DNA of 64,000 bases from a virus: positions 1 through 64,000 of IMG/VR virus record IMGVR_UViG_3300012209_000005; one strand, 5' to 3'. Below, one piece after another: positions 19,955 to 33,690 of the stretch (positions are counted from its first letter, which is position 1; every line of letters begins with the position of its first letter). The notes beneath the pieces are model-generated. The model was not told where the DNA came from. It searched no databases and saw only the letters and a program-made list of their open reading frames with translations. The position numbers were made by a program, and so were the translations under genes.

Positions 19955-20350
19955 TTGAGAGATCGTCGCGAGTATATGCGTGTATACCAGCAGGCATGGC
20001 TTGCCGATAGACGCAAGAGAGCTATCGCGATTCTCGGCGGTAAGTGCGCCTGGTGCGATAGCGTCGAGGATCTTGAGGTTGACCATATTATCCCCGCCAG
20101 GTGGATGGGATACGAAAGTCCCGGAGGACAGCTATGGTCATGGTCATGGGCGCGCATAGAAGTCGAACTAGCGAAGTGTTGGCTTCTCTGCCAAGAGTGT
20201 CATCGCGTTAAAACTCGTGATGACATGCCTGACACTCTACATGGCACTCCGGGCATGTACCACAACAAGCGTTGCCGCTGCGATAAGTGCAGGAAGTGGA
20301 TGAGAAATTACAAGCGTGACTACAGGGCACGCAAAGCAAACGGGATGTAG
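19955..20350 (+). CDS. HNH endonuclease inside the tRNA island
   Basis: 131 aa. CAWC ... LEVDHIIPARW ... LLCQECHRVKT is a complete HNH core (H, N/H and the two CxxC pairs). A second Cys/Arg-rich module (NKRCRCDKCRKWMRNYKRDYRARK) may bind DNA. The TTG start lies 2 nt after tRNA-Pro, and the UAG stop is bases 8-10 of the next tRNA. Lower GC than its neighbours suggests transfer. Likely a homing-type nuclease that targets or moves with tRNA genes. Confidence 0.8.
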   Translation: MRDRREYMRVYQQAWLADRRKRAIAILGGKCAWCDSVEDLEVDHIIPARWMGYESPGGQLWSWSWARIEVELAKCWLLCQECHRVKTRDDMPDTLHGTPGMYHNKRCRCDKCRKWMRNYKRDYRARKANGM

Positions 20351-20415
20351 CTCAGCAGGCAGAGCACCGCGTTTAGGCACGCGGAAGGCCGGGCGTTCGA
20401 AGCGCTCCATCCAGA
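20341..20415 (+). tRNA. tRNA with 8-nt anticodon loop (Pro-like, UAGG)
   Basis: Acceptor CGGGATG/CATCCAG (C1-G72, one mismatch), D arm GCTC/GAGC, anticodon stem CCGCG/CGCGG with the 8-nt loop TTTAGGCA, T arm GGGCG-TTCGAAG-CGCTC. The loop can present UAG, AGG or the quadruplet UAGG. The Pro-like first pair and neighbouring Pro tRNAs favour proline. Confidence 0.7.
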
Positions 20416-20486
20416 CGAAGGCTGGCGAAAGGAAACTCACAAGGGGACCCTCCCCGTGCGGGGGAGCGCCAGCCTCACCACCACCC

Positions 20487-20557
20487 CGGGATATAGTGAA
20501 GCGGTATAACACCTGCCCTGGGAGCAGGTGACGGAGGTTCGACTCCTCCTGTCCCGA
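20487..20557 (+). tRNA. tRNA-Pro(UGG), C33
   Basis: CGGGATA/TGTCCCG acceptor, anticodon stem CCTGC/GCAGG with loop CCTGGGA, so base 33 is C instead of U. T loop TTCGACT. Confidence 0.85.
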
Positions 20558-20632
20558 CGGGAGCATTCGCATGCGAGCAGCCCAGGACGCCCGTAAATAA
20601 CCTGGGTTCTCTCAATACAAAAACGGGCACAT

Positions 20633-20705
20633 GGTCGCCTAGCTCAAATGGTAGAGCGGTCGCCTGAAAAGCGACAGGTTGAGGGTTCGACCACCTCGGT
20701 GACCA
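20633..20705 (+). tRNA. tRNA-Phe(GAA)
   Basis: GGTCGCC/GGTGACC acceptor, anticodon stem GTCGC/GCGAC, loop CTGAAAA. Confidence 0.92.
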
Positions 20706-20725
20706 CGCGGCACGGTAGCTGCGCA

Positions 20726-20792
20726 GAGAATGGCGGTTACTTCTTTCACCGGATAAGTGAGTGGTTGCGGGTTCGAGTCCCGTCGCCTTAGC
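20726..20792 (+). tRNA. truncated tRNA-like sequence
   Basis: Good T arm GCGGG-TTCGAGT-CCCGT and a 3' acceptor strand followed by discriminator and C, but only one other arm (TTACTT/AAGTGA with a 12-nt loop containing CTTTCAC). Probably a relic missing an arm. Confidence 0.3.
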
Positions 20793-20864
20793 AGAAACCT
20801 TGCGGAAATGCCAGGGTTCCGCCTGGAAGGAAACTTCCGGGGAAGGGCCCCGAGCGTCGCGAGG

Positions 20865-21304
20865 CGGGGCGTAGTTCAATGGCAGAACGCTAACGATGCC
20901 TCCGGGGTTACACCCGGGGCAGCTCCCCCCGCGGGGGGCAGAAACCGCTCCTCGCCTGGTTCACTACCGTGCCACCATCTCCATGCCGGCTGCGAAGACA
21001 CAAGGGGTTACTTCGCCTGTCTGCGGAACAGGATCGCCCGCGAGGGCATCCGAGTCACCCCGCCGTCACAATGGTCCACCGGCATGGCTCAACCCTCCTG
21101 GCCTCGCCTTCCCCATTGCGGCCAGGGGGCACGCGGTACCGTCGGCAAGGTACCGCCCGGGGGTGAGGTCCAGTATGCCACCGTCGTCTGGAGACCTCCC
21201 CCCAACAGGGAGGGTGCCCGGGGAGCGCACACAGTTACCCCTGGGCACCCTCCCGCCTATAGCGGAGCTTCGCTCCCCCGGGGCAGCCGCAGGCTGCGCC
21301 TCTG
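20865..21304 (+). other. 440-nt region of tRNA fragments and long hairpins
   Basis: Begins with a tRNA 5' half (GGCGGGG...GTTCAATGGCAGAAC). At 20985-21086 a cloverleaf-like block has a D-like arm CGAAG/CTTCG and a perfect anticodon-type arm CCTGT-CTGCGGA-ACAGG (GCG, Arg) but no normal T arm. At 21208-21254 a 12-bp perfect hairpin. No convincing gene. Confidence 0.4.
21259..21284. repeat. dispersed palindromic repeat, copy 6
   Basis: AGCGGAG / CTTCGCTCCCC between hairpins, just before tRNA-Gly. Confidence 0.65.
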
Positions 21305-21375
21305 GCGGATGTAGTTCAACGGCAGAACCTCAGGCTTCCATCCTGATGACGCGGGTTCAATTCCCGTCGTCCGCT
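21305..21375 (+). tRNA. tRNA-Gly(UCC)
   Basis: GCGGATG/CGTCCGC acceptor, anticodon stem TCAGG/CCTGA, loop CTTCCAT, T loop TTCAATT, discriminator U. Confidence 0.92.
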
Positions 21376-21376
21376 C

Positions 21377-21688
21377 GTGACAGATACCGAAAAGATCACC
21401 GGGAAGCTCAGCTACAAGCCCGGGTGGGCGTTCGCCTACGCGAAGGACCAGTTCTATGATGTGCTCATCATCAGCGGGCTGGTGCCCGACTCCCGGGACC
21501 CGTCCCGGATGCTGGCATTCGAGACGCGCAGGCCCGTTCCCGGGTACCTGCGGACCGCGAGCCAGGATGACTTCCTCGACTGGGTGGGGCAGCTGCTCCT
21601 CGAAGCCGAATACCATGAGCTGCGGGAGTACTTCCGCTACGACGGGGAGCTTGTAGACAATCCGCACAAGGTCAGAGGAGCAGTGTAG
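21377..21688 (+). CDS. conserved-looking hypothetical protein
   Basis: 103 aa, GTG two bases after tRNA-Gly. Soluble: KPGWAFAYAKDQFYDVLIISGLVPDSR near the N-terminus and a charged amphipathic end. No family I can name. The leaderless position after the tRNA implies translation after RNA processing. Confidence 0.65.
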   Translation: MTDTEKITGKLSYKPGWAFAYAKDQFYDVLIISGLVPDSRDPSRMLAFETRRPVPGYLRTASQDDFLDWVGQLLLEAEYHELREYFRYDGELVDNPHKVRGAV

Positions 21689-21735
21689 GTGCACACGGAA
21701 GGTCACCCCGCTTCCCGGGCGGCAGAAGGGGGCAC

Positions 21736-21858
21736 ATGATAATCTCATGGCCCTGCAGGTTCCTGATGTGCAGGCGCGGTCATGTGTGCACGCTCCGGGG
21801 ATGCCGGTGCGACTGCCACGCGAAGAGAAAAGAAGATCGCCGTATCAGCGGGATGTAG
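21736..21858 (+). CDS. 40-aa Cys/Arg-rich micro-protein
   Basis: MIISWPCRFLMCRRGHVC...CRCDCHAKRK: six cysteines and two histidines, a probable zinc binder. Its UAG stop is bases 8-10 of tRNA-Pro(GGG). Confidence 0.5.
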   Translation: MIISWPCRFLMCRRGHVCTLRGCRCDCHAKRKEDRRISGM

Positions 21859-21923
21859 TTCAGCGTGGCTAGAACGCCTGCCTGGGGGGCAGGAGGCCGG
21901 GAGTTCGAGTCTCCCCGTCCCGA
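21849..21923 (+). tRNA. tRNA-Pro(GGG)
   Basis: CGGGATG/CGTCCCG acceptor (C1-G72), stem CCTGC/GCAGG, loop CTGGGGG, T loop TTCGAGT. Confidence 0.92.
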
Positions 21924-21924
21924 C

Positions 21925-22041
21925 GTGGTGAGAGAATGGATACGGATGAAGTTCAGGATGCCGCAGCCGGAGTGGCCCGACTACCTGTGCTGGGGTATCA
22001 TCATCGTCTTGCTGGTCATCATCCACATGGCGGCGACGTGA
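21925..22041 (+). CDS. 38-aa single-span membrane protein
   Basis: GTG two bases after tRNA-Pro; an internal ATG at 21946 is the alternative. WPDYLCWGIIIVLLVIIHM is one span. Stop overlaps the next GTG. Confidence 0.5.
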   Translation: MVREWIRMKFRMPQPEWPDYLCWGIIIVLLVIIHMAAT

Positions 22042-22337
22042 AGCTGAAAGACAGCAAGATCTGCTGGAAGGGTCACGTGCCTCACCATGTAGCTGGATAC
22101 GAGGAGCCCCTGCGCACGCCCTGCCGGTTCGGGTACTGCATGATCCTGCGCTGCCCGAACTGCAAGCTGGAGTGGGGCGGCTATGGTCCGATCGACTGTC
22201 CGCATAAGAAGAACGAGAACGGCACCCTGCGGTCGTATAAATACCCCGACATGGACGAAAAGACCCATGTCGCAGTAAAGGAGAATAAAGACATGCGAAA
22301 GCCTAAGCGCTTTAAGCGCACCCGTAAGATCCGGTAG
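22038..22337 (+). CDS. zinc-ribbon protein, basic tail
   Basis: 99 aa; CPNC-x10-C-PH zinc site (about 45-60), C-terminus KPKRFKRTRKIR. GTG overlaps the previous stop. UAG stop is bases 8-10 of tRNA-Lys(CUU). Basic tail suggests RNA or DNA binding. Confidence 0.6.
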   Translation: MKLKDSKICWKGHVPHHVAGYEEPLRTPCRFGYCMILRCPNCKLEWGGYGPIDCPHKKNENGTLRSYKYPDMDEKTHVAVKENKDMRKPKRFKRTRKIR

Positions 22338-22403
22338 CTCAGTCTGGTTAGCAGCGTCCGACTCTTAATCGGCAGGTCGTGGGTTCGAATCCCACCCGGA
22401 TCA
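22328..22403 (+). tRNA. tRNA-Lys(CUU)
   Basis: GATCCGG/CCGGATC acceptor, loop CTCTTAA, T arm GTGGG-TTCGAAT-CCCAC. Confidence 0.95.
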
Positions 22404-22432
22404 CGCACGAGCACACCGAAAGGAAGAGTAAC

Positions 22433-22675
22433 ATGGCATGGGGGCGCAAGTGCTGCAACAGCAACCGCGTCAAAGGCCAGCCTAACACGCGGTTCGCCTG
22501 CCAGTGCGATCTCACCAAGTGCAAGGGCTGCCGATGCAAGGGCTGCGGGCCTTGCAGGCAAAGGAGGCAATATGAAACCGGACTCGCCGAAACGCCAGGC
22601 TCCGGTAGCTTAATGGCAAGCGTCCGACTTTTAATCGGTTGTTATGCGGGTTCGACTCCCGTCCGGAGTACGTGA
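22433..22675 (+). CDS. Cys-rich micro-protein, 3' end runs into a tRNA
   Basis: ATG with GGAAGAG upstream. First 42 residues: KCC...CQCDLTKCKGCRCKGCGPC, ten cysteines, a probable metal binder. No stop occurs before tRNA-Lys(UUU), so the frame reads through that tRNA gene; the true end is uncertain. An AAGGAGG-ATG for a 13-aa peptide lies inside. Confidence 0.45.
   Translation: MAWGRKCCNSNRVKGQPNTRFACQCDLTKCKGCRCKGCGPCRQRRQYETGLAETPGSGSLMASVRLLIGCYAGSTPVRST
22599..22670 (+). tRNA. tRNA-Lys(UUU)
   Basis: GCTCCGG/CCGGAGT acceptor, stem TCCGA/TCGG-T, loop CTTTTAA, T loop TTCGACT. Confidence 0.92.
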
Positions 22676-22821
22676 TCACTCCCCAGGGCATTATCGCTAA
22701 AACCAGGACGACGACAATGGACAAGGTTGAGAAATGCTGCTGGGGCAGGACAAAATGCCACTGCTCTTCAGGATGCCCGTGCATCAAGACGCACGGCTGC
22801 ACGAAATGTGAGTGCACATGA
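22672..22821 (+). CDS. metallothionein-like Cys-rich protein
   Basis: 49 aa from the GTG two bases after tRNA-Lys; ATG at 22717 is the alternative. KCCWGRTKCHCSSGCPC..HGCTKCECT holds ten cysteines in about 30 residues, like bacterial metallothioneins or multi-zinc knuckles. Overlaps the next start (ATGA). Confidence 0.6.
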   Translation: MITPQGIIAKTRTTTMDKVEKCCWGRTKCHCSSGCPCIKTHGCTKCECT

Positions 22822-22997
22822 GGCACATGATGCGGATACACGGCCCCGGGAAAGACGAGGGCAAAAGCAAGCTGTGGAAGTGCCCGCACGGGTGCCTGGC
22901 GGTTCTCCCGGGTGCCACGACCGGGCGCAGGTATGCCGTGCGGCGGCCGAGGTGCGCATCCTGCCACCGTTCCATGACTGAAGTGAAGGACCGCTAG
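22818..22997 (+). CDS. zinc-ribbon protein
   Basis: 59 aa; CPHGC and CASCH clusters about 25 residues apart. UAG stop; its last G is the first base of tRNA-Leu(CAA). Confidence 0.6.
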   Translation: MRHMMRIHGPGKDEGKSKLWKCPHGCLAVLPGATTGRRYAVRRPRCASCHRSMTEVKDR

Positions 22998-23077
22998 GGC
23001 GGCTGGCGGAATGGCAGACGCGCCGGCTTCAAGTCCCGGTGTCGGAAGACGTGAGGGTTCGAATCCCTCGTCGCCTA
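22997..23077 (+). tRNA. tRNA-Leu(CAA)
   Basis: Class II tRNA, acceptor GGGCGGC/GTCGCCT, loop TTCAAGT, variable arm GTCGGAAGAC, T arm GAGGG-TTCGAAT-CCCTC. Confidence 0.88.
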
Positions 23078-23090
23078 CGGTAGTAAATGA

Positions 23091-23164
23091 TCCCCTCTAG
23101 TTCATCTTGGCAGAACGCTCGGCTCTGGACCGGGAGGTACGAGGTTCGAATCCTCGGGGGGGAG
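23091..23164 (+). tRNA. tRNA-Gln(CUG)
   Basis: TCCCCTC/GGGGGGA acceptor, loop CTCTGGA, T arm CGAGG-TTCGAAT-CCTCG. Confidence 0.93.
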
Positions 23165-23220
23165 CCGGGGTCGCGGCAATGATCCTGGAGCCGTGACCTC
23201 ACGGCTGCCGCGAACCCCGC
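23165..23220 (+). other. two-tier hairpin RNA
   Basis: Outer arms CGGGG-T-CGCGGCA and TGCCGCG-AA-CCCCG, inner 7-bp stem AGCCGTG/CACGGCT. May be a terminator or processing signal. Confidence 0.5.
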
Positions 23221-23251
23221 TTGCAGGAGGAAGATATGAAAGAAGAAGGCA

Positions 23252-23416
23252 ATGTCACATCACTCTCTCTCTGATGAGCACACGGTCAGGAAGACGGGCA
23301 GGAAAATCACGGTGACACGCTCCTGTTCGTGCGGGCTCTCCTGGATGGGCACGGGCCGGAGGCTGAGGAGCGCGGAAAGGAACCTGAAGTCGGCCTGGAA
23401 GAAGCATCTCGCATAG
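23252..23416 (+). CDS. 54-aa basic protein with CSC motif
   Basis: MSHHSLSDEHTVRKTGRK...RSCSCGLSWM..., about one quarter Lys/Arg; GAAGG precedes the ATG. Possibly RNA binding; no family. Confidence 0.5.
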   Translation: MSHHSLSDEHTVRKTGRKITVTRSCSCGLSWMGTGRRLRSAERNLKSAWKKHLA

Positions 23417-23420
23417 CCCT

Positions 23421-23495
23421 GCCTCCTTAGCTCATTCGGCGTAGAGCATGGCTCTCGTAAAGCCAAGGCGGCCGGTTCGATCCCGGCAGGAGGCT
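23421..23495 (+). tRNA. tRNA-Thr(CGU)
   Basis: GCCTCCT/AGGAGGC acceptor, stem TGGCT/AGCCA, loop CTCGTAA. Confidence 0.94.
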
Positions 23496-23496
23496 C

Positions 23497-23745
23497 GTGA
23501 ACATACACGACAGGAATCAGATGGTCCTCGGGATCGCCCGCGACCTGGGGGAGAAGTTCGGGCTGGAGCAGACGGTGCAGGACGCTTGCGGCGACCTGGT
23601 TTCCGGGGTTAGGATCAGCGAGGTGGTGATGTCTTTCAGCGAGGGACTGAGAGCCTCGGTGCCGATCTCCGGGAAGGTCGTAGATGATGGCGATATGCCG
23701 GAAGTGCCGGATGTACTCCGCGACGCGGGGGAAGTTGTGCGTTAG
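23497..23745 (+). CDS. hypothetical protein
   Basis: 82 aa; GTG two bases after tRNA-Thr. Soluble and acidic, mixed helix/strand, no cysteine motif of note. Followed directly by the gene at 23746. Confidence 0.6.
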   Translation: MNIHDRNQMVLGIARDLGEKFGLEQTVQDACGDLVSGVRISEVVMSFSEGLRASVPISGKVVDDGDMPEVPDVLRDAGEVVR

Positions 23746-23904
23746 ATGCTTCAAGGCTGGGGGGTAGTCACGCGCCGGTGCCCGCACTGTGACCAGCTGC
23801 AGTACCCCTGCCCGGTTTCCGAGTGCTGCTCGGGGGGCTGGAAGCACTTCGGGACCGGGCACCACGCATGCGCTCGTGGCGGAACGGCATACGCGCCAGC
23901 TTGA
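23746..23904 (+). CDS. zinc-binding micro-protein overlapping tRNA-Leu
   Basis: 52 aa; CPHC ... CPVSECC ... HHAC. The last 12 codons lie inside tRNA-Leu(GAG), stopping at TGA in its anticodon region. Confidence 0.5.
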   Translation: MLQGWGVVTRRCPHCDQLQYPCPVSECCSGGWKHFGTGHHACARGGTAYAPA

Positions 23905-23954
23905 GGTGCTGGTGAGTCGCAAGACTCGTGGGGGTTCAAATCCCCCCGTGCGCA
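23870..23954 (+). tRNA. tRNA-Leu(GAG)
   Basis: Class II, acceptor GCGCTCG/CGTGCGC (one mismatch), stem CCAGC/GCTGG, loop TTGAGGT, variable stem GAGTC/GACTC. Confidence 0.92.
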
Positions 23955-23957
23955 CTG

Positions 23958-24029
23958 GTCCGGGGTCGTCAACCGGATACGGGCAGCTGATCGTCTTACC
24001 CGGGCGAGTGCCACTGCCCGTCCCCGGGC
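23958..24029 (+). other. bulged 16-bp hairpin RNA
   Basis: GTCCGGGG plus ACGGGCAG pair with the contiguous 3' strand CTGCCCGT-CCCCGGGC, leaving a 13-nt bulge and a 27-nt loop. Confidence 0.5.
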
Positions 24030-24033
24030 CTTT

Positions 24034-24107
24034 GCCAGCTTAGCTCAGCTAGGTAGAGCACCCGCTTTGTAAGCGGCAGGTCATCGGTTCGATCCCGTTA
24101 GCTGGCT
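24034..24107 (+). tRNA. tRNA-Thr(UGU)
   Basis: GCCAGCT/AGCTGGC acceptor, loop TTTGTAA, T loop TTCGATC. Confidence 0.93.
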
Positions 24108-24121
24108 CGAAGGGAACAGAA

Positions 24122-24250
24122 ATGAGAAGATGCAAATACTGCAAGACCTTGCGGTTTAAGTCACAGCTGAAGCGCGGCGCAATGTTCGGCAACCGGATCT
24201 GCAAGAACAGGGAAGCCTGCGATAGGCGCAAGGCGGCTAGTGGGCGGTAG
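24122..24250 (+). CDS. zinc-ribbon protein, paralogue of genes at 260 and 416
   Basis: 42 aa. CKYC, about 20 mostly basic residues, then C-x5-C and RRK. Same spacing as the small proteins at 260-637 and 416-613. UAG stop is bases 8-10 of tRNA-Gln(UUG). Confidence 0.6.
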   Translation: MRRCKYCKTLRFKSQLKRGAMFGNRICKNREACDRRKAASGR

Positions 24251-24313
24251 CTCAACCGGCAGAGCGTCCGGCTTTGGTCCGGAAGGTTCGGGGTCCGAAT
24301 CCCTGGCGCCCAG
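24241..24313 (+). tRNA. tRNA-Gln(UUG)
   Basis: TGGGCGG/GCGCCCA acceptor (one mismatch), stem TCCGG/CCGGA, loop CTTTGGT; T loop TCCGAAT with C at its second base. Confidence 0.9.
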
Positions 24314-24328
24314 CAACAGGAGAATGTC

Positions 24329-24595
24329 ATGGAGATCATCGAGCTTGTCCCCGGGGCGCACTTCCCGGGCGCGGTGGAGCTGCCCAACAAGAACGTGCGG
24401 TGGGTGAACGGGACCAACAAGTCGTCCCCTGGAGGCAACTCCGTCCCGAAGAGGAAAGGCCGGATGGTCATCCCGGGCAAGATGCACGCCGATATCCTCA
24501 AGCAGTCGCAGGAGCAGACGAGGCGGCATGCTAAGATCCTGGTGATCTCCGGGGGCAAGAGGCGCTGGGTGCTGGCCAGCGAATGGAAGGACTGA
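24329..24595 (+). CDS. hypothetical basic protein
   Basis: 88 aa; ACAGGAG before the ATG. Beta-rich N-terminus and Lys/Arg-rich loops (PKRKGRMVIPGK), compatible with RNA binding. No family recognised. Confidence 0.6.
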   Translation: MEIIELVPGAHFPGAVELPNKNVRWVNGTNKSSPGGNSVPKRKGRMVIPGKMHADILKQSQEQTRRHAKILVISGGKRRWVLASEWKD

Positions 24596-24598
24596 CAG

Positions 24599-24805
24599 GT
24601 GGGCAGGCAGGAAGAAGAGCACAGCAAGCGGGAGCCGGTACCCGTCAGCTGGCGGGATAAGCACAGCCGCAGCCGCCATCGGACGGCGGTCCCGCTGAAG
24701 TACAGGGACCACCCGCGGCGGAGCTTCTCCACGCGGGCAGCCGGCTGGGTACTTGCGTTCATCGTGCTCTTCTGGTTCTTCCGTTTCGTGCTCCACGCAG
24801 GGTAA
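24599..24805 (+). CDS. single-span membrane protein, charged N-terminus
   Basis: 68 aa; 48 hydrophilic residues then AGWVLAFIVLFWFFRFVLHAG, a C-terminal tail anchor. GTG start just after the previous stop. Confidence 0.6.
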   Translation: MGRQEEEHSKREPVPVSWRDKHSRSRHRTAVPLKYRDHPRRSFSTRAAGWVLAFIVLFWFFRFVLHAG

Positions 24806-25537: not shown

Positions 25538-25945
25538 GTGGTGGACGTTAAGCAGGTCATCGTCATCCGCAAGGACCTGGGGATGCGCCGGGGCAAGGAG
25601 ATCGCCCAGGGCTCGCACGCTTCCATCGCGTGGCTGACGAACAGGCTGACGATGCTCGGGTACGTCAACCCGGGGGAGCGGGGCAAGTACGCCAGCTGCC
25701 ACCTGACCGAGGCGGAGTGGCAGTGGACGGACGGCAACTTCCGTAAGATATGCTGTGTCGTGAACAGCGAGGACGAGCTGCTCGAACTGGCAGCGAAGGC
25801 GAAGGCCGCGGGCCTTGTCTGCGAGGTCATCGAGGACACCGGGCTCACCGAGTTCGGGGGCGTGCCCACGCTCACCGCGCTGGCGATCGGGCCCGACTAT
25901 GACGAGAAGATCGACCCGGTGACCGGGAACCTGAAGCTTTACTAG
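25538..25945 (+). CDS. pth2: Pth2-type peptidyl-tRNA hydrolase
   Basis: 135 aa; GTG (25538 or 25541) after GGAAGGGA. Pth2 signatures in order: KQVIVIRKDLGMRRGKEIAQGSHA (N-terminal strand and catalytic Lys/Asp region), CCVVNSEDELLELAAKAKAAGL, VIEDTGLTEF and PTLTALAIGP. Pth2 is the archaeal/eukaryotic-type enzyme that frees tRNA from aborted peptides; bacteria normally use unrelated Pth1. In a tRNA island it would recycle peptidyl-tRNAs during infection. Confidence 0.88.
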   Translation: MVDVKQVIVIRKDLGMRRGKEIAQGSHASIAWLTNRLTMLGYVNPGERGKYASCHLTEAEWQWTDGNFRKICCVVNSEDELLELAAKAKAAGLVCEVIEDTGLTEFGGVPTLTALAIGPDYDEKIDPVTGNLKLY

Positions 25946-27573: not shown

Positions 27574-27942
27574 ATGGGTAAGGGGAATCCCGCTAATAGC
27601 AGGAAAAGGGAACTGGCGTTCACGGTCCCGAAAGAGAAGTTCGTCATCAAGACGTTCACCGCCGGGGGTCCCGGCGGGCAGCACCAGAACCACTCGAATA
27701 CCGCGGTGCGGATCACCCACCCGGACTCCGGGGCCTCCGCCGAATGCCGGATGTTCCGCAGCCAGCACCAGAATAAGATGACGGCTTTCCGGAACCTGGT
27801 GAACTCCGGGAAGTTCCGGACGTGGGTGAACCGGCAGCTGCTGGGAAACCCGCTGCCCCCGGAGGAGCAGGTGAAGCGGGATATGCACCCGGACAACCTG
27901 CTGGTCATGACGATGACGGACGGGAAGTGGAAGATTGATTAA
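27574..27942 (+). CDS. stand-alone GGQ-domain release factor protein
   Basis: 122 aa; GGTGAGG upstream of the ATG. AGGPGGQHQN holds the universal GGQ motif that triggers peptidyl-tRNA hydrolysis. NTAVRITHPDSG and ECRMFRSQHQNK follow as in domain 3 of RF1/RF2. Domains 1, 2 and 4, including stop-codon recognition, are absent and the basic ribosome-rescue tail of ArfB is not evident. It may release peptides from stalled ribosomes independently of a stop codon. Confidence 0.85.
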   Translation: MGKGNPANSRKRELAFTVPKEKFVIKTFTAGGPGGQHQNHSNTAVRITHPDSGASAECRMFRSQHQNKMTAFRNLVNSGKFRTWVNRQLLGNPLPPEEQVKRDMHPDNLLVMTMTDGKWKID

Positions 27943-28866: not shown

Positions 28867-28889
28867 GGAAGCGCAGCTTCGCTGCCCAT
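28867..28889. repeat. dispersed palindromic repeat, copy 7
   Basis: GGAAGCGCAG / CTTCGCTGCCC, 2 nt after tRNA-Ser(UGA). Confidence 0.7.
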
Positions 28890-28908
28890 GCGATCAGGAA
28901 GGAGAACT

Positions 28909-29052
28909 ATGCCTGACGACTGGACGTGCGCGTACTGCCAGGAGCGTCTTTTCCTGGGCGTAAGCGGGGAGTGGGTCGGGCAGCGTTCCCTAAGGCGCTG
29001 CAGGAAAAGCCCTGACCTGGCGCATCACCTTGAGAAGAAGGGGAACCAGTGA
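28909..29052 (+). CDS. zinc-ribbon-like protein
   Basis: 47 aa, AAGGAG before the ATG. CAYCQERL ... RRCRKS resembles the CxxC/C family at 24122. Confidence 0.5.
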   Translation: MPDDWTCAYCQERLFLGVSGEWVGQRSLRRCRKSPDLAHHLEKKGNQ

Positions 29053-29064
29053 GCGGAAGTGACG

Positions 29065-29208
29065 ATGCCTGACGCGACATGCACCAGGACGTACTGCGGG
29101 TGCACGTGCCCGCCATGCCGGCACGCACGACGGAACAGGGACGACGCCCATGCCGACCATTGCGGCCGGCATGCCAGGGACTGCCACTGGATCCGGTGCG
29201 CAGGGTGA
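29065..29208 (+). CDS. Cys/His micro-protein of the CxCxCxxC family
   Basis: 47 aa. C-G-C-T-C-P-P-C-R, then HC-x2-H-x3-CH-x3-C: eight conserved Cys/His positions shared with the window-start protein and those at 29718 and 36398. Probably binds two zinc ions. Function unknown. Confidence 0.6.
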   Translation: MPDATCTRTYCGCTCPPCRHARRNRDDAHADHCGRHARDCHWIRCAG

Positions 29209-29213
29209 ACCAT

Positions 29214-29287
29214 GGGTGCGTAGCTCAGTCGGTTAGAGCATCTTCCTGATAAGGAGAAGGCCGGAGGTTCAATTCCTCTCGCACCTA
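29214..29287 (+). tRNA. tRNA-Ile(GAU)
   Basis: GGGTGCG/CGCACCT acceptor, loop CTGATAA, T loop TTCAATT. Confidence 0.94.
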
Positions 29288-29309
29288 CGTAAATGAAAGG
29301 TCCAGTCAG

Positions 29310-29513
29310 GTGAACACGGAAGAGCGCACCCCCGAAGGGCGGATTGCCGCGCTTGAGCAGCTGGTGAGCACGCTGCGGCAGGACAACGTGCGGCAGTGGC
29401 AGGCGATCCTGCGGCTGGCGAGGCTGGTGGCGAAGATCACCGGCGTCCCCGAGCAGGACATCGCGGCGGAAGAGGCGCTCATGGATGAGCAGCTCCGTCG
29501 TGCGGGCTCGTAG
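29310..29513 (+). CDS. coiled-coil hypothetical protein
   Basis: 67 aa, GTG start. RIAALEQLVSTLRQDNVRQWQAILRLARLV has heptad-like hydrophobics. UAG stop is bases 8-10 of tRNA-Ile(UAU). Confidence 0.6.
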   Translation: MNTEERTPEGRIAALEQLVSTLRQDNVRQWQAILRLARLVAKITGVPEQDIAAEEALMDEQLRRAGS

Positions 29514-29577
29514 CTCAACAGGTCAGAGCAGCTGTCTTATGAGCAGAGGGTTCCAGGTTCAAATCCTGGCGAGCCTA
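29504..29577 (+). tRNA. tRNA-Ile(UAU)
   Basis: GGGCTCG/CGAGCCT acceptor, loop CTTATGA, T arm CCAGG-TTCAAAT-CCTGG. Reads AUA directly, unlike the usual bacterial tRNA-Ile with lysidine. Confidence 0.9.
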
Positions 29578-29578
29578 C

Positions 29579-29746
29579 GTGAAAGAAACCAGGCACACGC
29601 ATTACACCAGGTACTGGGCGACCATGACCGCCTGCAGGAAGCGGGTCGCGGATGTGGTATACTCCAGTCATTTCACGACGATGGTGACCTGCCCCGCATG
29701 CAAGGCGGCGATGCGAGATGACAAGCCGGTGGCCCGTCGGGGATGA
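29579..29746 (+). CDS. small zinc-type protein
   Basis: 55 aa; GTG two bases after tRNA-Ile(UAU); ATG at 29624 is the alternative. CPAC near the C-terminus and an earlier Cys. Overlaps the next gene. Confidence 0.5.
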   Translation: MKETRHTHYTRYWATMTACRKRVADVVYSSHFTTMVTCPACKAAMRDDKPVARRG

Positions 29747-29891
29747 CGGTGACAACACGGGCATGGAGTGGATGTGCGCCTGCAGCTGCGGGCGGTGCGG
29801 TCCGCTAGACGAGCATGACTGCGGCACTGCAGCCTGCGATCGCGGGCACTACGAAAGATGTTCCGTCGAGAGAATTCCCCGAAGTTCCTGA
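29718..29891 (+). CDS. Cys/His micro-protein of the CxCxCxxC family
   Basis: 57 aa. C-A-C-S-C-G-R-C followed by HDC, AAC, H and RC. Same motif as 29065 and 36398 with small spacing changes. Confidence 0.55.
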   Translation: MTSRWPVGDDGDNTGMEWMCACSCGRCGPLDEHDCGTAACDRGHYERCSVERIPRSS

Positions 29892-29917
29892 CAGGCAGCT
29901 GAGCTGGGCTTACCGTC
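29889..29917 (+). promoter_or_regulatory. leaderless promoter of the secreted NlpC/P60 gene
   Basis: CTGACA, 17-nt spacer, TACCGT, then 7 nt to the ATG at 29924. Twin of the promoter at 18144. Confidence 0.65.
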
Positions 29918-29923
29918 AGATGC

Positions 29924-30445
29924 ATGACATTCACCACCAGCGGAATGCTTTTCAGCAAGGGCCGGCATGTCAGGCAGCGCTCACGAGTTACTGCAGTAGT
30001 CGTGACTGTCCTCACCCTGGTTGCTGCAGCGGTCTGGTCTTTCGTCGGAGCCCAGCAGGCCAGCGCCGCGGTCAGCTGGGGCCCGTCGGGGAGCCTGGGC
30101 AACCAGGCCCTGTCCTGGGCCGAGCGCAATGCCCTCGGGCACTGGTACCTGTGGGGCGGCACCGGGCCGTCCTATGACTGCAGCGGGCTCGTGATGGAAG
30201 CCTACGGGCGCGCCACCGGGGTGTGGCTGCCGCACAGCACGTACTCGATGCTCGCCAGCGGGCACCTGAGGCGCACGTACTACCCGCAGCGCGGGGACCT
30301 TGCCTTCTACGGGTCCGGGCATGTAGAGTTCGTGACAGTCCTTTACCACACCACATTCGGCGCGCACCACACCGGCACCCGTATCGGGTGGATCGGGTAC
30401 GGCGGGTCCTGGGCGCCCACCGCCTACTACCGGGTCGTCAGGTAG
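29924..30445 (+). CDS. secreted NlpC/P60 endopeptidase
   Basis: 173 aa. Signal peptide (SRVTAVVVTVLTLVAAAVW, cleavage after ASA near residue 48), then the NlpC/P60 core: WYLWGGTGPSYDCSGLVMEAY (catalytic Cys), QRGDLAFYGSGHVEFV (catalytic His). No wall-binding domain. A secreted peptidase with its own promoter inside the tRNA island; it could act on the host wall at entry or lysis. Distinct from the anchored enzyme at 16973. Confidence 0.85.
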   Translation: MTFTTSGMLFSKGRHVRQRSRVTAVVVTVLTLVAAAVWSFVGAQQASAAVSWGPSGSLGNQALSWAERNALGHWYLWGGTGPSYDCSGLVMEAYGRATGVWLPHSTYSMLASGHLRRTYYPQRGDLAFYGSGHVEFVTVLYHTTFGAHHTGTRIGWIGYGGSWAPTAYYRVVR

Positions 30446-30471
30446 TGTGCCAGTCCTGTAAGGAAGAGGGT

Positions 30472-30660
30472 ATGACAGCAGCCGTCATCCGCGAGAAGGG
30501 CGTCAGCGCCAAGGGCGTCCTCGTGCAAAGCGATCCTGAGGGGAACCTCACCGTCCAGCTGGGGCTGAACGATGACGGCAGGACGAAGTTCACCGAGGAG
30601 GAGGCCCTCGCCCTGTACGAGAACCTCGGGAACATGATTGAATGGAAGCCGGAAAGCTAG
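30472..30660 (+). CDS. small acidic protein
   Basis: 62 aa; GGAAGAGG before the ATG. Beta-strand-like N-terminus and acidic helix (TKFTEEEALALYENLGN). No family. Confidence 0.6.
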   Translation: MTAAVIREKGVSAKGVLVQSDPEGNLTVQLGLNDDGRTKFTEEEALALYENLGNMIEWKPES

Positions 30661-30667
30661 ACTTCCC

Positions 30668-30741
30668 GCGCCGTTAGCTCAGCAGGACAGAGCAGCGCCC
30701 TTCTATGGCGACGGTCAGGGGTTCGAATCCCTTACGGCGTG
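30668..30741 (+). tRNA. tRNA-Arg(UCU)
   Basis: GCGCCGT/ACGGCGT acceptor, loop CTTCTAT, T arm AGGGG-TTCGAAT-CCCTT. Confidence 0.92.
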
Positions 30742-30794
30742 CTATCATCACTGTAAGTGCTCAGCCCAGACACTTAACGCTGTAGCACTATCAT

Positions 30795-30869
30795 GCCCCT
30801 GCAGAGCAGTCAGGAGTGTTCGCCACCCTCTCAAGGTGGAAACCGCCGGTTCAAATCCGGTCAGGGGTA
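30795..30869 (+). tRNA. tRNA-Glu(CUC)
   Basis: GCCCCTG/CAGGGGT acceptor, stem CCACC/GGTGG, loop CTCTCAA, T arm GCCGG-TTCAAAT-CCGGT. D arm resembles tRNA-Asp at 31809. Confidence 0.92.
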
Positions 30870-30986
30870 CGGTTGCGCTGAACGGCGTGCAGCAAGCTTC
30901 TCAGCCCTGGCGATCCGTTCCGTAGCGGTCACGTGCACAGGACCGTTCCCCTCACCGGGGGAGGGGACTACCATCCCCCCGGTCAG

Positions 30987-31061
30987 GCTCCGGTAGGCAA
31001 AGCGTGTAAAGCCGCCTGCCCTTCAAGCAGGAGTTTCCGGGTTCGAGTCCCGGGCGGAGCA
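30987..31061 (+). tRNA. tRNA-Glu(UUC), C33
   Basis: GCTCCGG/GCGGAGC acceptor (one mismatch), stem CCTGC/GCAGG, loop CCTTCAA with C at 33, T arm CCGGG-TTCGAGT-CCCGG. Confidence 0.85.
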
Positions 31062-31062
31062 C

Positions 31063-31245
31063 ATGAGTAAATACCCGACCGAGCAAGCGCTGATCAACTT
31101 GGTCAACGACCTGGCGGACGACCTGAAGAAGATAGAGCGGGGCAACCCTGCTCACATCCCGGCGACGGCGAGACTCATACAGGCACGCAAAGCGCTGGCG
31201 TTGCACCGCAAGGGCATCAAGGCAGGCGAAGACAAGGCGAGGTAG
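31063..31245 (+). CDS. 60-aa helical protein
   Basis: ATG two bases after tRNA-Glu; INLVNDLADDLKKIERG...RLIQARKALALHRKG is helical and charged. UAG stop is bases 8-10 of tRNA-Met. Both ends are thus set by tRNAs. Confidence 0.6.
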   Translation: MSKYPTEQALINLVNDLADDLKKIERGNPAHIPATARLIQARKALALHRKGIKAGEDKAR

Positions 31246-31310
31246 CTCAGCTGGCAAGAGCGCTCCGCTCATAACGGAGAGGTTCGGGGGTTCGAGCCCC
31301 CCCCTCGCTA
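31236..31310 (+). tRNA. tRNA-Met(CAU), elongator type
   Basis: GGCGAGG/CCTCGCT acceptor, stem CTCCG/CGGAG, loop CTCATAA. No C1-A72 mismatch, so elongator Met or lysidine-type Ile. Confidence 0.9.
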
Positions 31311-31335
31311 CGGTCACCCACCAGGGAGAACCCCC

Positions 31336-31491
31336 GTGTCCAAGAACCCTGAGCAGAAGGAAGCGGCCAGGCTGGCGAAGCTGCGGCGGCGCTGGGAGAA
31401 GGAGAACGGGCGCGGCAGCAAGAAGATGCGCACCATGTACAAGCATGCCAGCGGGCACAACGACGGACTCCCCAGGACGCCGACCAGCTGA
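31336..31491 (+). CDS. 51-aa basic protein
   Basis: GTG start; AARLAKLRRRWEKENGRGSKKMRTMYKHASG: Lys/Arg-rich helix. No family. AGGGAG lies upstream. Confidence 0.5.
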   Translation: MSKNPEQKEAARLAKLRRRWEKENGRGSKKMRTMYKHASGHNDGLPRTPTS

Positions 31492-31492
31492 C

Positions 31493-31521
31493 TTGACATC
31501 GGTACCCGCAGGGCATAAGCT
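31493..31521 (+). promoter_or_regulatory. strong promoter before initiator tRNA
   Basis: TTGACA (31493-31498), 17-nt spacer, TAAGCT (31516-31521); predicted start 6 nt before the tRNA. The best -35/-10 match in the island. Confidence 0.8.
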
Positions 31522-31533
31522 TTAAACACACGA

Positions 31534-31608
31534 CGCGGAGTGGCGCAGTTCGGTAGCGCGCTGGGCTCATAACCCAGAGGTTCGCAGGTTCAAATCCTGC
31601 CTCCGCAA
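31534..31608 (+). tRNA. initiator tRNA-fMet(CAU)
   Basis: CGCGGAG/CTCCGCA acceptor with the C1-A72 mismatch, and anticodon stem CTGGG/CCCAG with three G-C pairs next to the CTCATAA loop: both initiator hallmarks. Confidence 0.92.
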
Positions 31609-31657
31609 CGAGACCCGCTAATGCGGTCCTGGGCATGACCGGAAACTGCCCTTTCAT

Positions 31658-31731
31658 TCCCCTGTAGCTCAACTAGGCAGAGCACTTGGCTGTTAACCAG
31701 GGAGTTATAGGTTCGAATCCTATCGGGGGAG
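31658..31731 (+). tRNA. tRNA-Asn(GUU)
   Basis: TCCCCTG/CGGGGGA acceptor, stem CTTGG/CCAGG, loop CTGTTAA, T arm ATAGG-TTCGAAT-CCTAT. Confidence 0.94.
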
Positions 31732-31746
31732 CGAGGAGAGTTTACA

Positions 31747-31818
31747 ATGTTAACGAGAAGACAATACGTCGGCTTCGTCGTGGCGAAACCTGGCGGTACA
31801 CATTACATGGTCATGTAG
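31747..31818 (+). CDS. 23-aa micro-protein
   Basis: GAGGAGAG before the ATG; MLTRRQYVGFVVAKPGG.... UAG stop is bases 8-10 of tRNA-Asp. Confidence 0.4.
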   Translation: MLTRRQYVGFVVAKPGGTHYMVM

Positions 31819-31883
31819 AGCAGCTTGGAGTGCTCGCCACCCTGTCAAGGTGGAGGTCGCGGGTTCAAGTCCCGTCTTGACCG
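31809..31883 (+). tRNA. tRNA-Asp(GUC)
   Basis: GGTCATG/CTTGACC acceptor (one mismatch), stem CCACC/GGTGG, loop CTGTCAA. Confidence 0.93.
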
Positions 31884-31897
31884 CGTACACTGAAAGT

Positions 31898-32098
31898 ATG
31901 TACGTCTTCGACGACGAAGATGACGAGAAGAAGGATGCTGAAGTGATGCCTGATTACTGGGAGCAGATGGGCTACGTGCCCTGCCCGTTCTACGACCGGG
32001 TGACCTGGGAGGAGCTGGCCGGGGAGAGTCTCACCCATGACACCGGCCATGTCGACCACGTTGATCATGTCCTGCATTCGACTGCAGCGACATCATGA
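31898..32098 (+). CDS. acidic hypothetical protein
   Basis: 66 aa; MYVFDDEDDEKKDAEVMPDYWEQMGY, His/Asp-rich C-terminus (HDTGHVDHVDHVLH) that could bind metal. Overlaps the next gene by 4 nt. Confidence 0.6.
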   Translation: MYVFDDEDDEKKDAEVMPDYWEQMGYVPCPFYDRVTWEELAGESLTHDTGHVDHVDHVLHSTAATS

Positions 32099-32238
32099 TT
32101 GCAGCTTTCGCGATCGCCGGCATCGCCCTGGGCATGGCGACGGTCGTCGCAACCCTCCGGTTCGGGTTTCCCGGGCTGCTGGTCATGCTCGCGGTGATAG
32201 CGGCGGTAACAGCTGCTATCCTTAGCAGTATCCACTAG
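32095..32238 (+). CDS. 47-aa two-span membrane protein
   Basis: Two hydrophobic segments around an Arg-Phe loop (TLRFGFPG). UAG stop whose last G is base 1 of tRNA-Val. Confidence 0.55.
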   Translation: MIAAFAIAGIALGMATVVATLRFGFPGLLVMLAVIAAVTAAILSSIH

Positions 32239-32311
32239 GACGCTTAGCTCAGCCGGGGAGAGCGCCTCCCTGACACGGAGGAGGCCGGGGGTTCAAACCC
32301 CTCAGCGTCTA
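32238..32311 (+). tRNA. tRNA-Val(GAC)
   Basis: GGACGCT/AGCGTCT acceptor, stem CCTCC/GGAGG, loop CTGACAC. Confidence 0.94.
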
Positions 32312-32356
32312 CGACGAGCGTTAAACCACTGCGGAGACAGCGGAACGCTTGCTCAA

Positions 32357-32438
32357 GGGGATGGATAAGGGTTCGACTAACCTGTAAAACCGCATGTCGG
32401 AACAGGTCAGGACAGGCGTTCGATTCGCCTCATCTCCA
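32357..32438 (+). tRNA. tRNA-like cloverleaf, enlarged anticodon arm
   Basis: Acceptor GGGGATG/CATCTCC and T arm AGGCG-TTCGATT-CGCCT are canonical, with discriminator A and the usual C. The middle holds GGTT/AACC and CCTGT/ACAGG arms, the latter with a 16-nt loop containing CCG/CGG. No clear anticodon. Preceded by AGCGTT/AACGCT hairpin and possible 5' half. Confidence 0.4.
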
Positions 32439-32452
32439 CTAGTTGTGACGCG

Positions 32453-32468
32453 AAGCGTCATGACGCTT
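32453..32468. repeat. 16-bp perfect palindrome
   Basis: AAGCGTCATGACGCTT between the tRNA-like element and the next gene; possible operator. Confidence 0.45.
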
Positions 32469-32516
32469 TAGCCCGGGGTACTGAAAGGCGCTCACCCACC
32501 TGATGTCCCCGGTACC

Positions 32517-32717
32517 ATGTACGGGGAGCGTGTGCGCAGGGAACGCAGGATCGACCGCAAGGTTGGCTACGACGAAGCAGCGGTCAAGCGCTTCTTCGAC
32601 GCGCTTGACGAGAAGGACAGGAAGAAGCACGCATCACCACGCCGGGTCGCCTGGCGGCGCAAGCTGCGCCAGGAGGCATTCCCGGTCCCGGAGTGGCTGA
32701 AAGACAAGCCCTCGTAG
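32517..32717 (+). CDS. basic helical protein
   Basis: 66 aa; RRERRIDRKVGYDEAAVKRFFDALDEKDRKKH, strongly charged, one amphipathic helix. No Shine-Dalgarno seen. UAG stop is bases 8-10 of tRNA-Arg(ACG). Confidence 0.6.
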   Translation: MYGERVRRERRIDRKVGYDEAAVKRFFDALDEKDRKKHASPRRVAWRRKLRQEAFPVPEWLKDKPS

Positions 32718-32781
32718 CTCAAAGGACTAGAGCATCGCGCTACGGACGCGGAGGCTGCAGGTTCGAATCCTGTCGAGGGTG
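32708..32781 (+). tRNA. tRNA-Arg(ACG)
   Basis: GCCCTCG/CGAGGGT acceptor, stem TCGCG/CGCGG, loop CTACGGA. Needs A34-to-inosine editing by host TadA for full decoding. Confidence 0.93.
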
Positions 32782-32785
32782 CGCT

Positions 32786-33040
32786 ATGAAAACTGATATC
32801 ATCATCGCCTTGTTCCTGCTCCTGCTGATCATCACCGTCTGCTCTCTTGTCATCAGCAAGCGGGAGAGCGATACGCGCAAGATGATGAAGGAGATGCGCA
32901 GGCAGCACGAGCGCAAGGTGGACCGCAAGGTGATACTGGGCAGGGGCAAGCGCTTCGACTGCCCCGCCTGCGGGTCGACGGAGCCGTGCGGCAGATGCCG
33001 GTTATGGTGCTACCATGAAGCTGATAAGCAAAGGTCTTGA
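32786..33040 (+). CDS. membrane-anchored zinc protein
   Basis: 84 aa; span IIIALFLLLLIITVCSLVI (5-23), coiled charged linker, then CPACGSTEPCGRC zinc ribbon. Membrane-tethered nucleic-acid or protein binder; function unknown. Confidence 0.6.
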   Translation: MKTDIIIALFLLLLIITVCSLVISKRESDTRKMMKEMRRQHERKVDRKVILGRGKRFDCPACGSTEPCGRCRLWCYHEADKQRS

Positions 33041-33046
33041 TATGAC

Positions 33047-33517
33047 ATGTGGTACATCGCCCTAGCCGGCATCTACGTGACGCTCTACCTGCGGAACGAC
33101 CGGGTGATCACGCCGGTTCACAGGTGGCTGCACGAGCCCGTCACGGGCAGTCACGCGGCGAATATGCACGGGGTCTGGCTTGGCGGCATCGTGCTTACCG
33201 CCATCGTTATCACCGCAATCCTTACCCGTAAGACAGGCGAGGCGGTCCCCGGGGTGCCGAGGGACACCAGCTGGGTGATAGGACTGGCGCTCGCGTTCAC
33301 CGGGTTCCTGTGGTACCTGGTCCAGGTCGGCAGGAAGCCGGCTGCCGTCATCACGCGCCCGCAGCCCACGGTGACGGTGACCGCCGGCAGTAGCCACCCG
33401 GTAACCAGCACGGTCATGCACGCGGCGGGCGTCAGCTGGGAAGTGGTCGCGATCTTCGGGGTCATCGGGGTGATCGTGCTCGGGGTGCTCTACTTCATCG
33501 TCCGGTACGTGCTGTGA
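33047..33517 (+). CDS. multi-span membrane protein
   Basis: 156 aa with hydrophobic segments near 2-15, 45-62, 78-92 and 128-152, and a Thr/Val-rich outer loop. No family recognised. Overlaps the next GTG. Confidence 0.65.
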   Translation: MWYIALAGIYVTLYLRNDRVITPVHRWLHEPVTGSHAANMHGVWLGGIVLTAIVITAILTRKTGEAVPGVPRDTSWVIGLALAFTGFLWYLVQVGRKPAAVITRPQPTVTVTAGSSHPVTSTVMHAAGVSWEVVAIFGVIGVIVLGVLYFIVRYVL

Positions 33518-33627
33518 AAACCCGGTGCATATACCCGGGGTGCCGGCGTAGGATAAGAGTTGCGTGGAGTAACCTCGCGGTCCTGTACTGCAGGAAGCAC
33601 CGCAAGGTTGTCAGCAAGGCTGCTTAG
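33514..33627 (+). CDS. 37-aa zinc micro-protein
   Basis: C-x4-C ... YCRKH, basic. GTG overlaps the previous stop. UAG stop is bases 8-10 of tRNA-Val(CAC). Confidence 0.55.
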   Translation: MKTRCIYPGCRRRIRVAWSNLAVLYCRKHRKVVSKAA

Positions 33628-33690
33628 CTCAGCGGAACGAGCGTCCCGTTCACACCGGGAGGGTCGAAGGTTCAACTCCTTCAGCGGCCA
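33618..33690 (+). tRNA. tRNA-Val(CAC)
   Basis: GGCTGCT/AGCGGCC acceptor, stem TCCCG/CGGGA, loop TTCACAC, T arm GAAGG-TTCAACT-CCTTC. Confidence 0.93.

What the first reader, a model, noticed from the sequence alone, without database searches (positions are those of the whole stretch)
20341..33690. UAG stop codons supplied by tRNA nucleotides 8-10
Nine coding regions end with TAG at exactly positions 8-10 of the next tRNA: tRNA starts 20341, 21849, 22328, 24241, 29504, 31236, 31809, 32708, 33618. Two more genes share the final G of their stop with tRNA base 1 (22997, 32238). Every overlap is in frame and uses the invariant U8-A9-G10. The last ribosomes would end inside a tRNA precursor, linking translation to RNase P processing. 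This is a regular design rather than chance packing.
Basis: seen in the sequence. Interest (0 to 1): 0.78.

Follow-up and report, generated by a model that had tools for sequence, protein, structure and literature searches.

The report
tRNAs lend stop codons to genes
In this virus of bacteria, and in many unrelated ones, small genes packed against the front of a tRNA gene use the tRNA's own conserved letters U-A-G as their stop signal; this looks like an opportunistic result of tight packing, not a built-in control device.

Summary
All nine TAGs at tRNA positions 8-10 are in the sequence, as are the two stops sharing tRNA base 1. About eight of the nine frames are plausible genes. The ninth (31809) is an out-of-frame reading of an HNH relic, and the tRNA at 20341 is doubtful.

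Across 1,676 tRNAs in this and other tRNA-bearing phage contigs, I called 179 genes ending near a tRNA start. Position 8 is the commonest stop (27 genes, 19 contigs). Yet genes approach tRNAs equally in all three frames (frame 0: 60/179, p = 1.0). Use of an in-tRNA stop falls with depth: 65% at <=8, 36% at 9-16, about 8% beyond. This fits a ready-made stop used when packing and frame allow, not a selected RNase P-translation device.

By-products: ORFs starting exactly at tRNA base 75; HNH endonucleases enriched among overlapping genes; and a conserved, unannotated 79-83 nt tmRNA without a tag frame (32357-32439), like a form known from phage DS6A.

The parts
19955..20350 (+). HNH endonuclease ORF: TTG at base 75 of tRNA-Pro(cgg), TAG 20348-20350 at bases 8-10 of the tRNA-like 20341-20416
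   Evidence: PHROG 4234 HNH E 1.2e-37; stop position; the tRNA is not reported by Rfam
21736..21858 (+). 40-aa Cys-rich ORF ending at bases 8-10 of tRNA-Pro(ggg) 21849-21924
   Evidence: weak codon score, SD-like GAAGGGGG upstream
22038..22337 (+). 99-aa ORF (GTG start) ending at bases 8-10 of tRNA-Lys(ctt) 22328-22404
   Evidence: codon score +26, all other frames negative
24122..24250 (+). 42-aa zinc-ribbon-like ORF ending at bases 8-10 of tRNA-Gln(ttg) 24241-24314
   Evidence: homologue in relative L018 at E 0.003, which ends at its own stop before a tRNA
29310..29513 (+). 67-aa ORF ending at bases 8-10 of tRNA-Ile(tat) 29504-29578
   Evidence: codon score +25
31063..31245 (+). 60-aa ORF filling the spacer: ATG is the first base after C74 of tRNA-Glu(ttc) 30987-31062, TAG is bases 8-10 of tRNA-Met(cat) 31236-31311
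   Evidence: codon score +20; start position
31747..31818 (+). 23-codon ORF ending at bases 8-10 of tRNA-Asp(gtc) 31809-31884; judged not a gene
   Evidence: overlaps, in another frame, an HNH relic at 31731-31793
32517..32717 (+). 66-aa ORF ending at bases 8-10 of tRNA-Arg(acg) 32708-32782
   Evidence: codon score +17
33514..33627 (+). 37-aa Cys-rich ORF ending at bases 8-10 of tRNA-Val(cac) 33618-33691
   Evidence: weak codon score
22812..22997 (+). ORF whose TAG shares its G with base 1 of tRNA-Leu(caa) 22997-23078
32095..32238 (+). 47-aa membrane-like ORF whose TAG shares its G with base 1 of tRNA-Val(gac) 32238-32312
22433..22675 (+). counter-example: Cys-rich ORF with good SD reading through the whole of tRNA-Lys(ttt) 22599-22671 in another frame
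23746..23904 (+). counter-example: ORF ending TGA at bases 33-35 of tRNA-Leu(gag) 23870-23955
21377..21688 (+). 103-aa ORF with GTG as the first base after C74 of tRNA-Gly(tcc), no SD
   Evidence: coding score 32
23497..23745 (+). 82-aa ORF with GTG as the first base after C74 of tRNA-Thr(cgt); AGGAGG lies inside the tRNA acceptor stem
   Evidence: coding score 12
32357..32439 (+). tmRNA tRNA-like domain without tag-coding domain (83 nt), G3-U70 acceptor pair, not annotated by ARAGORN
   Evidence: Rfam RF00023 57.3 bits, cut-off 47; counterparts in L021, L003, L024 and three Streptomyces phages
25538..25945 (+). peptidyl-tRNA hydrolase PTH2
   Evidence: Pfam PF01981 E 1.1e-29
27574..27942 (+). 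small RF-1-domain (GGQ) protein without codon-recognition domains
   Evidence: Pfam PF00472 E 7.5e-17; PDB relatives RF1/RF2, C12orf65, ArfB

Best explanation
These are shallow gene-tRNA overlaps that arise by packing. About half of phage tRNAs carry T8-A9-G10, a ready-made amber stop 8 bases inside the gene. When deletions, or insertions such as HNH endonuclease genes, bring a coding frame up against a tRNA, the frame is random. In the one third of cases where it reads into positions 8-10, the gene needs no stop of its own and keeps the tRNA's. Genes in the other two frames mostly keep their own stops, because their first in-tRNA stop usually lies too deep. Shown here: the stop positions, the equal frames, the fall of overlap with depth, the HNH enrichment. 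Inferred: on the unprocessed transcript ribosomes end normally at U8-A9-G10; once RNase P cuts before base 1 the upstream mRNA has no stop, so only uncut precursor yields normal product. A ribosome sitting there also competes with tRNA folding, which is probably why deep overlaps are rare.
For: Two contig sets were used, one picked by PTH2/RF-1 relatives plus the window and two reference phages, one by tandem tRNAs only: 1,676 tRNAs and 179 genes ending between -15 and +200 of a tRNA start. Frames 0/1/2 = 60/51/68 (frame 0 p = 1.0), yet +8 is the largest single position (27 genes in 19 contigs). Genes ending inside the tRNA, by first available in-tRNA stop: 30/46 at <=8, 12/33 at 9-16, 2/31 at 17-40, 6/69 beyond 40 (on a slightly smaller set, shallow versus deep Fisher p = 5e-10). 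Spacer shuffles: 10 against 4.9 at +8, and 6 against 16 in other frames. HNH motif in 8/45 genes ending inside tRNAs against 3/148 ending just before (p = 5e-4; PHROG counts agree). Recognisable proteins end at +8: thioredoxin (L026, L028), PTH2 (L080), HNH (L081, L140).
Against: In the window alone, by my manual count, about 11 of 19 gene ends near tRNAs are in frame 0, somewhat above one third (roughly p 0.02), so a local preference is not fully excluded. The gene caller is home-made and uses codon usage plus SD; short genes are missed and some calls will be wrong. Most contigs are metagenomic, so hosts and expression are unknown.
Confidence: 0.74

Rival explanations
1. Selected coupling device: the stop is placed inside the tRNA so that terminating ribosomes and RNase P exclude each other, timing tRNA release or limiting protein output.
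For: Excess at +8 over shuffles; geometry places the terminating ribosome over the RNase P site and the acceptor strand (inference).
Against: No excess of frame 0 among 179 genes; overlaps also at position 13; no annotated overlap in the Streptomyces phages; the L003 counterpart gene has its own stop; C1 phage Gizmo, with 26 tRNAs by ARAGORN, shows no annotated overlap.
Confidence: 0.07
2. Homing insertion: HNH endonuclease genes inserted flush with tRNA 5' ends, and their decayed remains, generate most overlaps.
For: HNH motif 8/45 against 3/148; HNH gene at 19955-20350 and HNH relic before tRNA-Asp in the window; intact HNH in L003 ending at base 13 of the same tRNA-Asp.
Against: 24 of 27 +8 genes lack the HNH motif; most window cases are not HNH. 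It is one route to packing rather than the whole cause.
Confidence: 0.12
3. Mostly not genes: GC-rich spacers leave long frames open and T8-A9-G10 always closes one of them.
For: Shuffled spacers already give 4.9 such ORFs; 31809 is spurious; 21849 and 33618 have weak codon support.
Against: Strong in-frame codon signal for 22328, 29504, 31236 and 32708; protein families at +8 elsewhere.
Confidence: 0.07

Closest known systems
Mitochondrial tRNA punctuation (human mtDNA; PMC9674279)
   Same: Protein genes abut tRNAs. RNase P cleavage can leave the mRNA without a stop, and in unprocessed MT-ND1 transcripts the flanking tRNA-Ile sequence supplies an in-frame stop.
   Different: Mitochondria complete stops by polyadenylation; here a full UAG lies inside the tRNA at a fixed conserved site. 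Processing was not shown here.
Overlapping genes of compact phage genomes (short stop/start overlaps; general knowledge)
   Same: Short overlaps created by packing and tolerated by selection.
   Different: The partner is a tRNA whose conserved U8-A9-G10 fixes the stop position.
Leaderless mRNAs of Actinobacteria and tRNA cleavage after C74 in P. acnes (PMC3848588)
   Same: All window tRNAs checked have C74 without CCA, and several ORFs start at base 75, where that kind of cleavage would give a leaderless mRNA.
   Different: Host and cleavage site of this phage are unknown.
Tag-less tmRNA of mycobacteriophage DS6A (cited in PMC11915505 from Mao 2009)
   Same: tmRNA tRNA-like domain without tag frame in a phage; the DS6A form was reported to inhibit host tmRNA in E. 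coli.
   Different: New sequences of 79-83 nt inside tRNA arrays; function not tested; the DS6A record was not available here for comparison.

Membership tests
tRNA punctuation (mitochondrial type) | Protein genes directly flanked by tRNAs with no or almost no spacer | tested here: met
   31063-31245 spans exactly from base 75 of one tRNA to bases 8-10 of the next; others abut on one side
tRNA punctuation (mitochondrial type) | mRNAs released by RNase P and 3' tRNA processing | not testable with these tools
   no RNA data for this virus
tRNA punctuation (mitochondrial type) | Stop codons completed by polyadenylation | tested here: not met
   each gene has a full encoded stop, nine of the listed ones UAG inside the tRNA
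tmRNA (RF00023) | tRNA-like domain with G3-U70 pair and conserved UUCGAC and T-arm | tested here: met
   57.3 bits against cut-off 47; GC,GC,GU pairs and full acceptor and T stems in 4 of 4 relatives
tmRNA (RF00023) | mRNA-like domain with tag reading frame and pseudoknots | tested here: not met
   290 model positions absent; only a 15-17 nt loop remains. Filed as a tmRNA-derived, tag-less form
Codon-independent ribosome-rescue GGQ proteins (ArfB, C12orf65) | GGQ domain without stop-codon recognition domain | tested here: met
   122 aa, GGQ conserved in 3 relatives, matches RF-1 domain only
Codon-independent ribosome-rescue GGQ proteins (ArfB, C12orf65) | Basic C-terminal tail for the empty mRNA channel | tested here: inconclusive
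   C-terminus ends ...NLLVMTMTDGKWKID by inspection; no strongly basic tail; closest PDB matches are RF1/RF2 domains

The most novel reading that the evidence does not exclude
Spacer ORFs such as 31063-31245 are true tRNA-punctuated minigenes: 3' tRNA cleavage after C74 releases a leaderless AUG/GUG mRNA, and RNase P cleavage removes its UAG, so each processed mRNA is both leaderless and stopless. The phage copes with the stalled ribosomes using its own kit in the same array: a tag-less tmRNA that blocks host tagging, a GGQ protein that releases the chains, and PTH2 that recycles peptidyl-tRNA.
Probability: 0.1. Interest if true: 0.85.

Novelty: new variant of a known kind. Interest (0 to 1): 0.45.

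Why it matters
It gives a simple, measured rule for how protein genes and tRNA genes share DNA in tRNA-rich phages: the tRNA's conserved U8-A9-G10 is a free stop, and overlaps are tolerated to about 15 bases. Gene callers that forbid CDS-tRNA overlap will cut or drop such genes. It also makes a question testable: whether RNase P cleavage turns these messages into stopless mRNAs, and why such arrays carry rescue-type genes and a tag-less tmRNA.

Tried and rejected
Conservation of the overlaps in syntenic relatives: L003 has the same tRNA order but not the overlaps. Named C1 and C2 mycobacteriophages and Streptomyces phages as positive controls: no annotated overlaps. A frame-0 excess as a mark of design: absent. 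A link between the RF-1/PTH2 neighbourhood and use of the in-tRNA stop: where a stop at <=8 was available, 20/28 genes used it in set A and 10/18 in set B, not clearly different. C74 as an ARAGORN artefact: a count anchored on the T-loop still gives C74 in 39/39 window tRNAs, while other phages show T74. The +75 start peak as a general rule: present in set A (10/30) but absent in set B (0/11), so it is limited to some phage groups. Near DNA matches among named phages: none. A full tmRNA in the rest of the 115-kb record: none found by ARAGORN. DS6A record under the accession I remembered: not found. Literature searches for prior reports of stops at tRNA 8-10 in phages found none in the open-access library, which is not proof of absence.
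Full report
What was checked. The window lies in a 115,415-base virus record with no near DNA match among 50,697 named phage records. ARAGORN finds 41 tRNAs, all on the + strand, between 18620 and 35534. But 28 of the 41 tRNAs carry TAG at positions 8-10, so one of three frames entering such a tRNA must end there. The question is which of those frames are genes.

Which frames are genes. With a codon model trained on the record's own long genes, the frames ending at 22328, 29504, 31236 and 32708 score +26, +25, +20 and +17, against negative scores in all other frames. The frame ending at 20341 is an HNH endonuclease (PHROG 4234, E 1.2e-37), although the downstream tRNA (four-base anticodon, eight-base loop) is not reported by Rfam at its cut-off. 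The 24241 frame has a homologue in a relative (E 0.003). 21849 and 33618 are short Cys-rich frames with weak support. 31809 is judged not a gene: in another frame the same DNA encodes the tail of an HNH gene that is intact before the same tRNA-Asp in the relative L003/L018.

Chance in the window. ORFs with at least 30 codons ahead of the tRNA and ending at +8 number 10 against 4.9 +/- 1.9 expected (P 0.01). ORFs entering tRNAs in the other two frames number 6 against 16. So there is about a twofold excess at +8 and a deficit of deep overlaps.

Related sequences. Relatives of the array's PTH2 and RF-1-domain proteins and of a neighbouring NlpC/P60 protein were fetched from IMG/VR. Those with tRNAs, together with the window and two reference mycobacteriophages, form set A: 32 contigs, 562 tRNAs. 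An independent set B was picked only for two tandem tRNAs: 120 loci, 1,114 tRNAs. A simple gene caller (codon log-odds plus Shine-Dalgarno, scored only on DNA upstream of the tRNA) was applied to both. Of 179 genes ending between -15 and +200 of a tRNA start, 60, 51 and 68 are in frames 0, 1 and 2 (frame 0: p = 1.0). The commonest single stop position is nevertheless +8, with 27 genes in 19 contigs. The share of genes ending inside the tRNA falls with the depth of the first in-tRNA stop in their frame: 30/46 at <=8, 12/33 at 9-16, 2/31 at 17-40, 6/69 beyond 40. On a slightly smaller set, shallow against deep gives Fisher p = 5e-10. Genes ending at +8 include thioredoxins, PTH2 and HNH endonucleases.

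Reading of these numbers. If the stop at 8-10 were a selected device, genes should arrive in frame 0 more often than one third. They do not. If it were meaningless, +8 should not stand out and deep overlaps should be as common. What fits is that the conserved U8-A9-G10 is a stop available for free: a gene pressed against a tRNA in that frame can lose its own stop at little cost, because the overlap is only ten bases. Position 13 (a stop in many D-arms) is used in the same way by genes in another frame. HNH endonuclease genes are one source of such junctions: the HNH motif occurs in 8 of 45 genes ending inside tRNAs and 3 of 148 ending just before them (p = 5e-4; PHROG counts agree).

Conservation. 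L003 keeps the same tRNA order as the window but not the overlaps, and the counterpart of the 24241 gene there has its own stop before the next tRNA. Annotated Streptomyces phages LuckySocke and pSt2308 and mycobacteriophages Gizmo and Myrna show no annotated overlap, though annotation practice may hide some. One overlap is shared by two related contigs (thioredoxin before tRNA-Met in L026 and L028).

The start side. In set A, start codons ATG/GTG lie exactly at the first base after the tRNA end in 10 of 30 in-frame downstream coding frames, against 2 of 255 frame positions in the eleven or so bases just upstream (classes summed). Most lack a Shine-Dalgarno sequence. They include window ORFs at 21377, 23497 and 31063 and the PTH2 of L003. 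In set B the peak is absent (0 of 11). All 39 window tRNAs that could be anchored on their T-loop have C74 and none encodes CCA. In the actinobacterium P. acnes, cleavage between C74 and C75 has been mapped, and leaderless AUG and GUG messages are common (PMC3848588). Cleavage after C74 would therefore release these ORFs as leaderless mRNAs. That is inference; the host of this virus is not known.

A tag-less tmRNA. Rfam reports a tmRNA at 32357-32441 with 57.3 bits (cut-off 47) but with 290 model positions missing. The 83-nt element keeps the acceptor stem with the G3-U70 alanine signal, the UUCGAC motif, helix 2 and the T-arm, and has no tag frame. Counterparts of 79-83 nt lie in L021, L003 and L024, with acceptor and T stems fully paired in all four and different sequences in helix 2, which pairs only in part in some of them. 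Matches over the full length occur in Streptomyces phages LuckySocke, GiJojo and pSt2308, where no RNA is annotated at the site in the two records read. A tag-less tmRNA in mycobacteriophage DS6A is on record and reportedly inhibits host tmRNA in E. coli (PMC11915505, citing Mao 2009), so this is a new member of that kind.

Mechanism. Most likely the genes end normally at U8-A9-G10 on transcripts not yet cut by RNase P. After the cut the upstream message has no stop. Whether that matters during infection is open. The array also carries a small GGQ protein (27574-27942) and PTH2, but such genes also occur in a tRNA-rich phage without annotated overlaps, and use of the in-tRNA stop was not clearly higher near them. 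A dedicated rescue link is therefore kept only as the novel case.

Limits. The gene caller is home-made; hosts are unknown; no expression data were available; some contigs may be related to each other; ARAGORN misses or misplaces some tRNAs.

Noticed in passing
window 32357-32439; L021 14163-14245; L003 14942-15020; L024 4263-4342; L272 12001-12079; L273 12001-12079: Conserved 79-83 nt tmRNA without tag-coding domain inside tRNA arrays, with G3-U70; also in Streptomyces phages LuckySocke, GiJojo and pSt2308, not annotated there as RNA. Known precedent: phage DS6A.
   Followed up: partly
window 19363, 21377, 21925, 23497, 29579, 31063: ORFs whose ATG/GTG is the first base after C74 of the preceding tRNA; three have good coding scores. 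A candidate for leaderless mRNAs made by tRNA 3' processing.
   Followed up: partly
window, all tRNAs 18620-35534: C74 present in 39 of 39 T-loop-anchored tRNAs with no CCA encoded, and G at 75 in 28 of 39; the same C74-without-CCA pattern in several other phage contigs.
   Followed up: partly
window 20341-20416: tRNA-Pro-like gene with an 8-nt anticodon loop and four-base anticodon TAGG, next to an HNH gene; below Rfam's cut-off, so degenerate or a candidate frameshift-suppressor tRNA.
   Followed up: no
window 19813-19954: A direct repeat (about 36 bp) of a tRNA 5' half just before tRNA-Pro(cgg), whose D-arm is aberrant; looks like a rearranged tRNA beside the HNH insertion.
   Followed up: no
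window 31731-31793: Relic of an HNH endonuclease gene before tRNA-Asp; the intact gene is present before the same tRNA in L003, where it ends at base 13 of the tRNA.
   Followed up: yes
L080 11047; L206 11986: Genes ending with UAG at bases 8-10 of a tRNA with anticodon CUA, that is, a possible amber-suppressor tRNA; readthrough of the gene by its own neighbour is conceivable.
   Followed up: no
L002 73-4459: Many tRNAs in this contig are preceded by an AT-rich leader such as AATTTAT directly before base 1; possible promoter or processing signal.
   Followed up: no
L085 5226-5654; L088 7218-7661: GOLLD RNAs inside tRNA arrays of phage or prophage contigs that also carry full-length tmRNAs.
   Followed up: no
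window 5030-8002: Ribonucleotide reductase-like ORF that appears to contain an intein.
   Followed up: no
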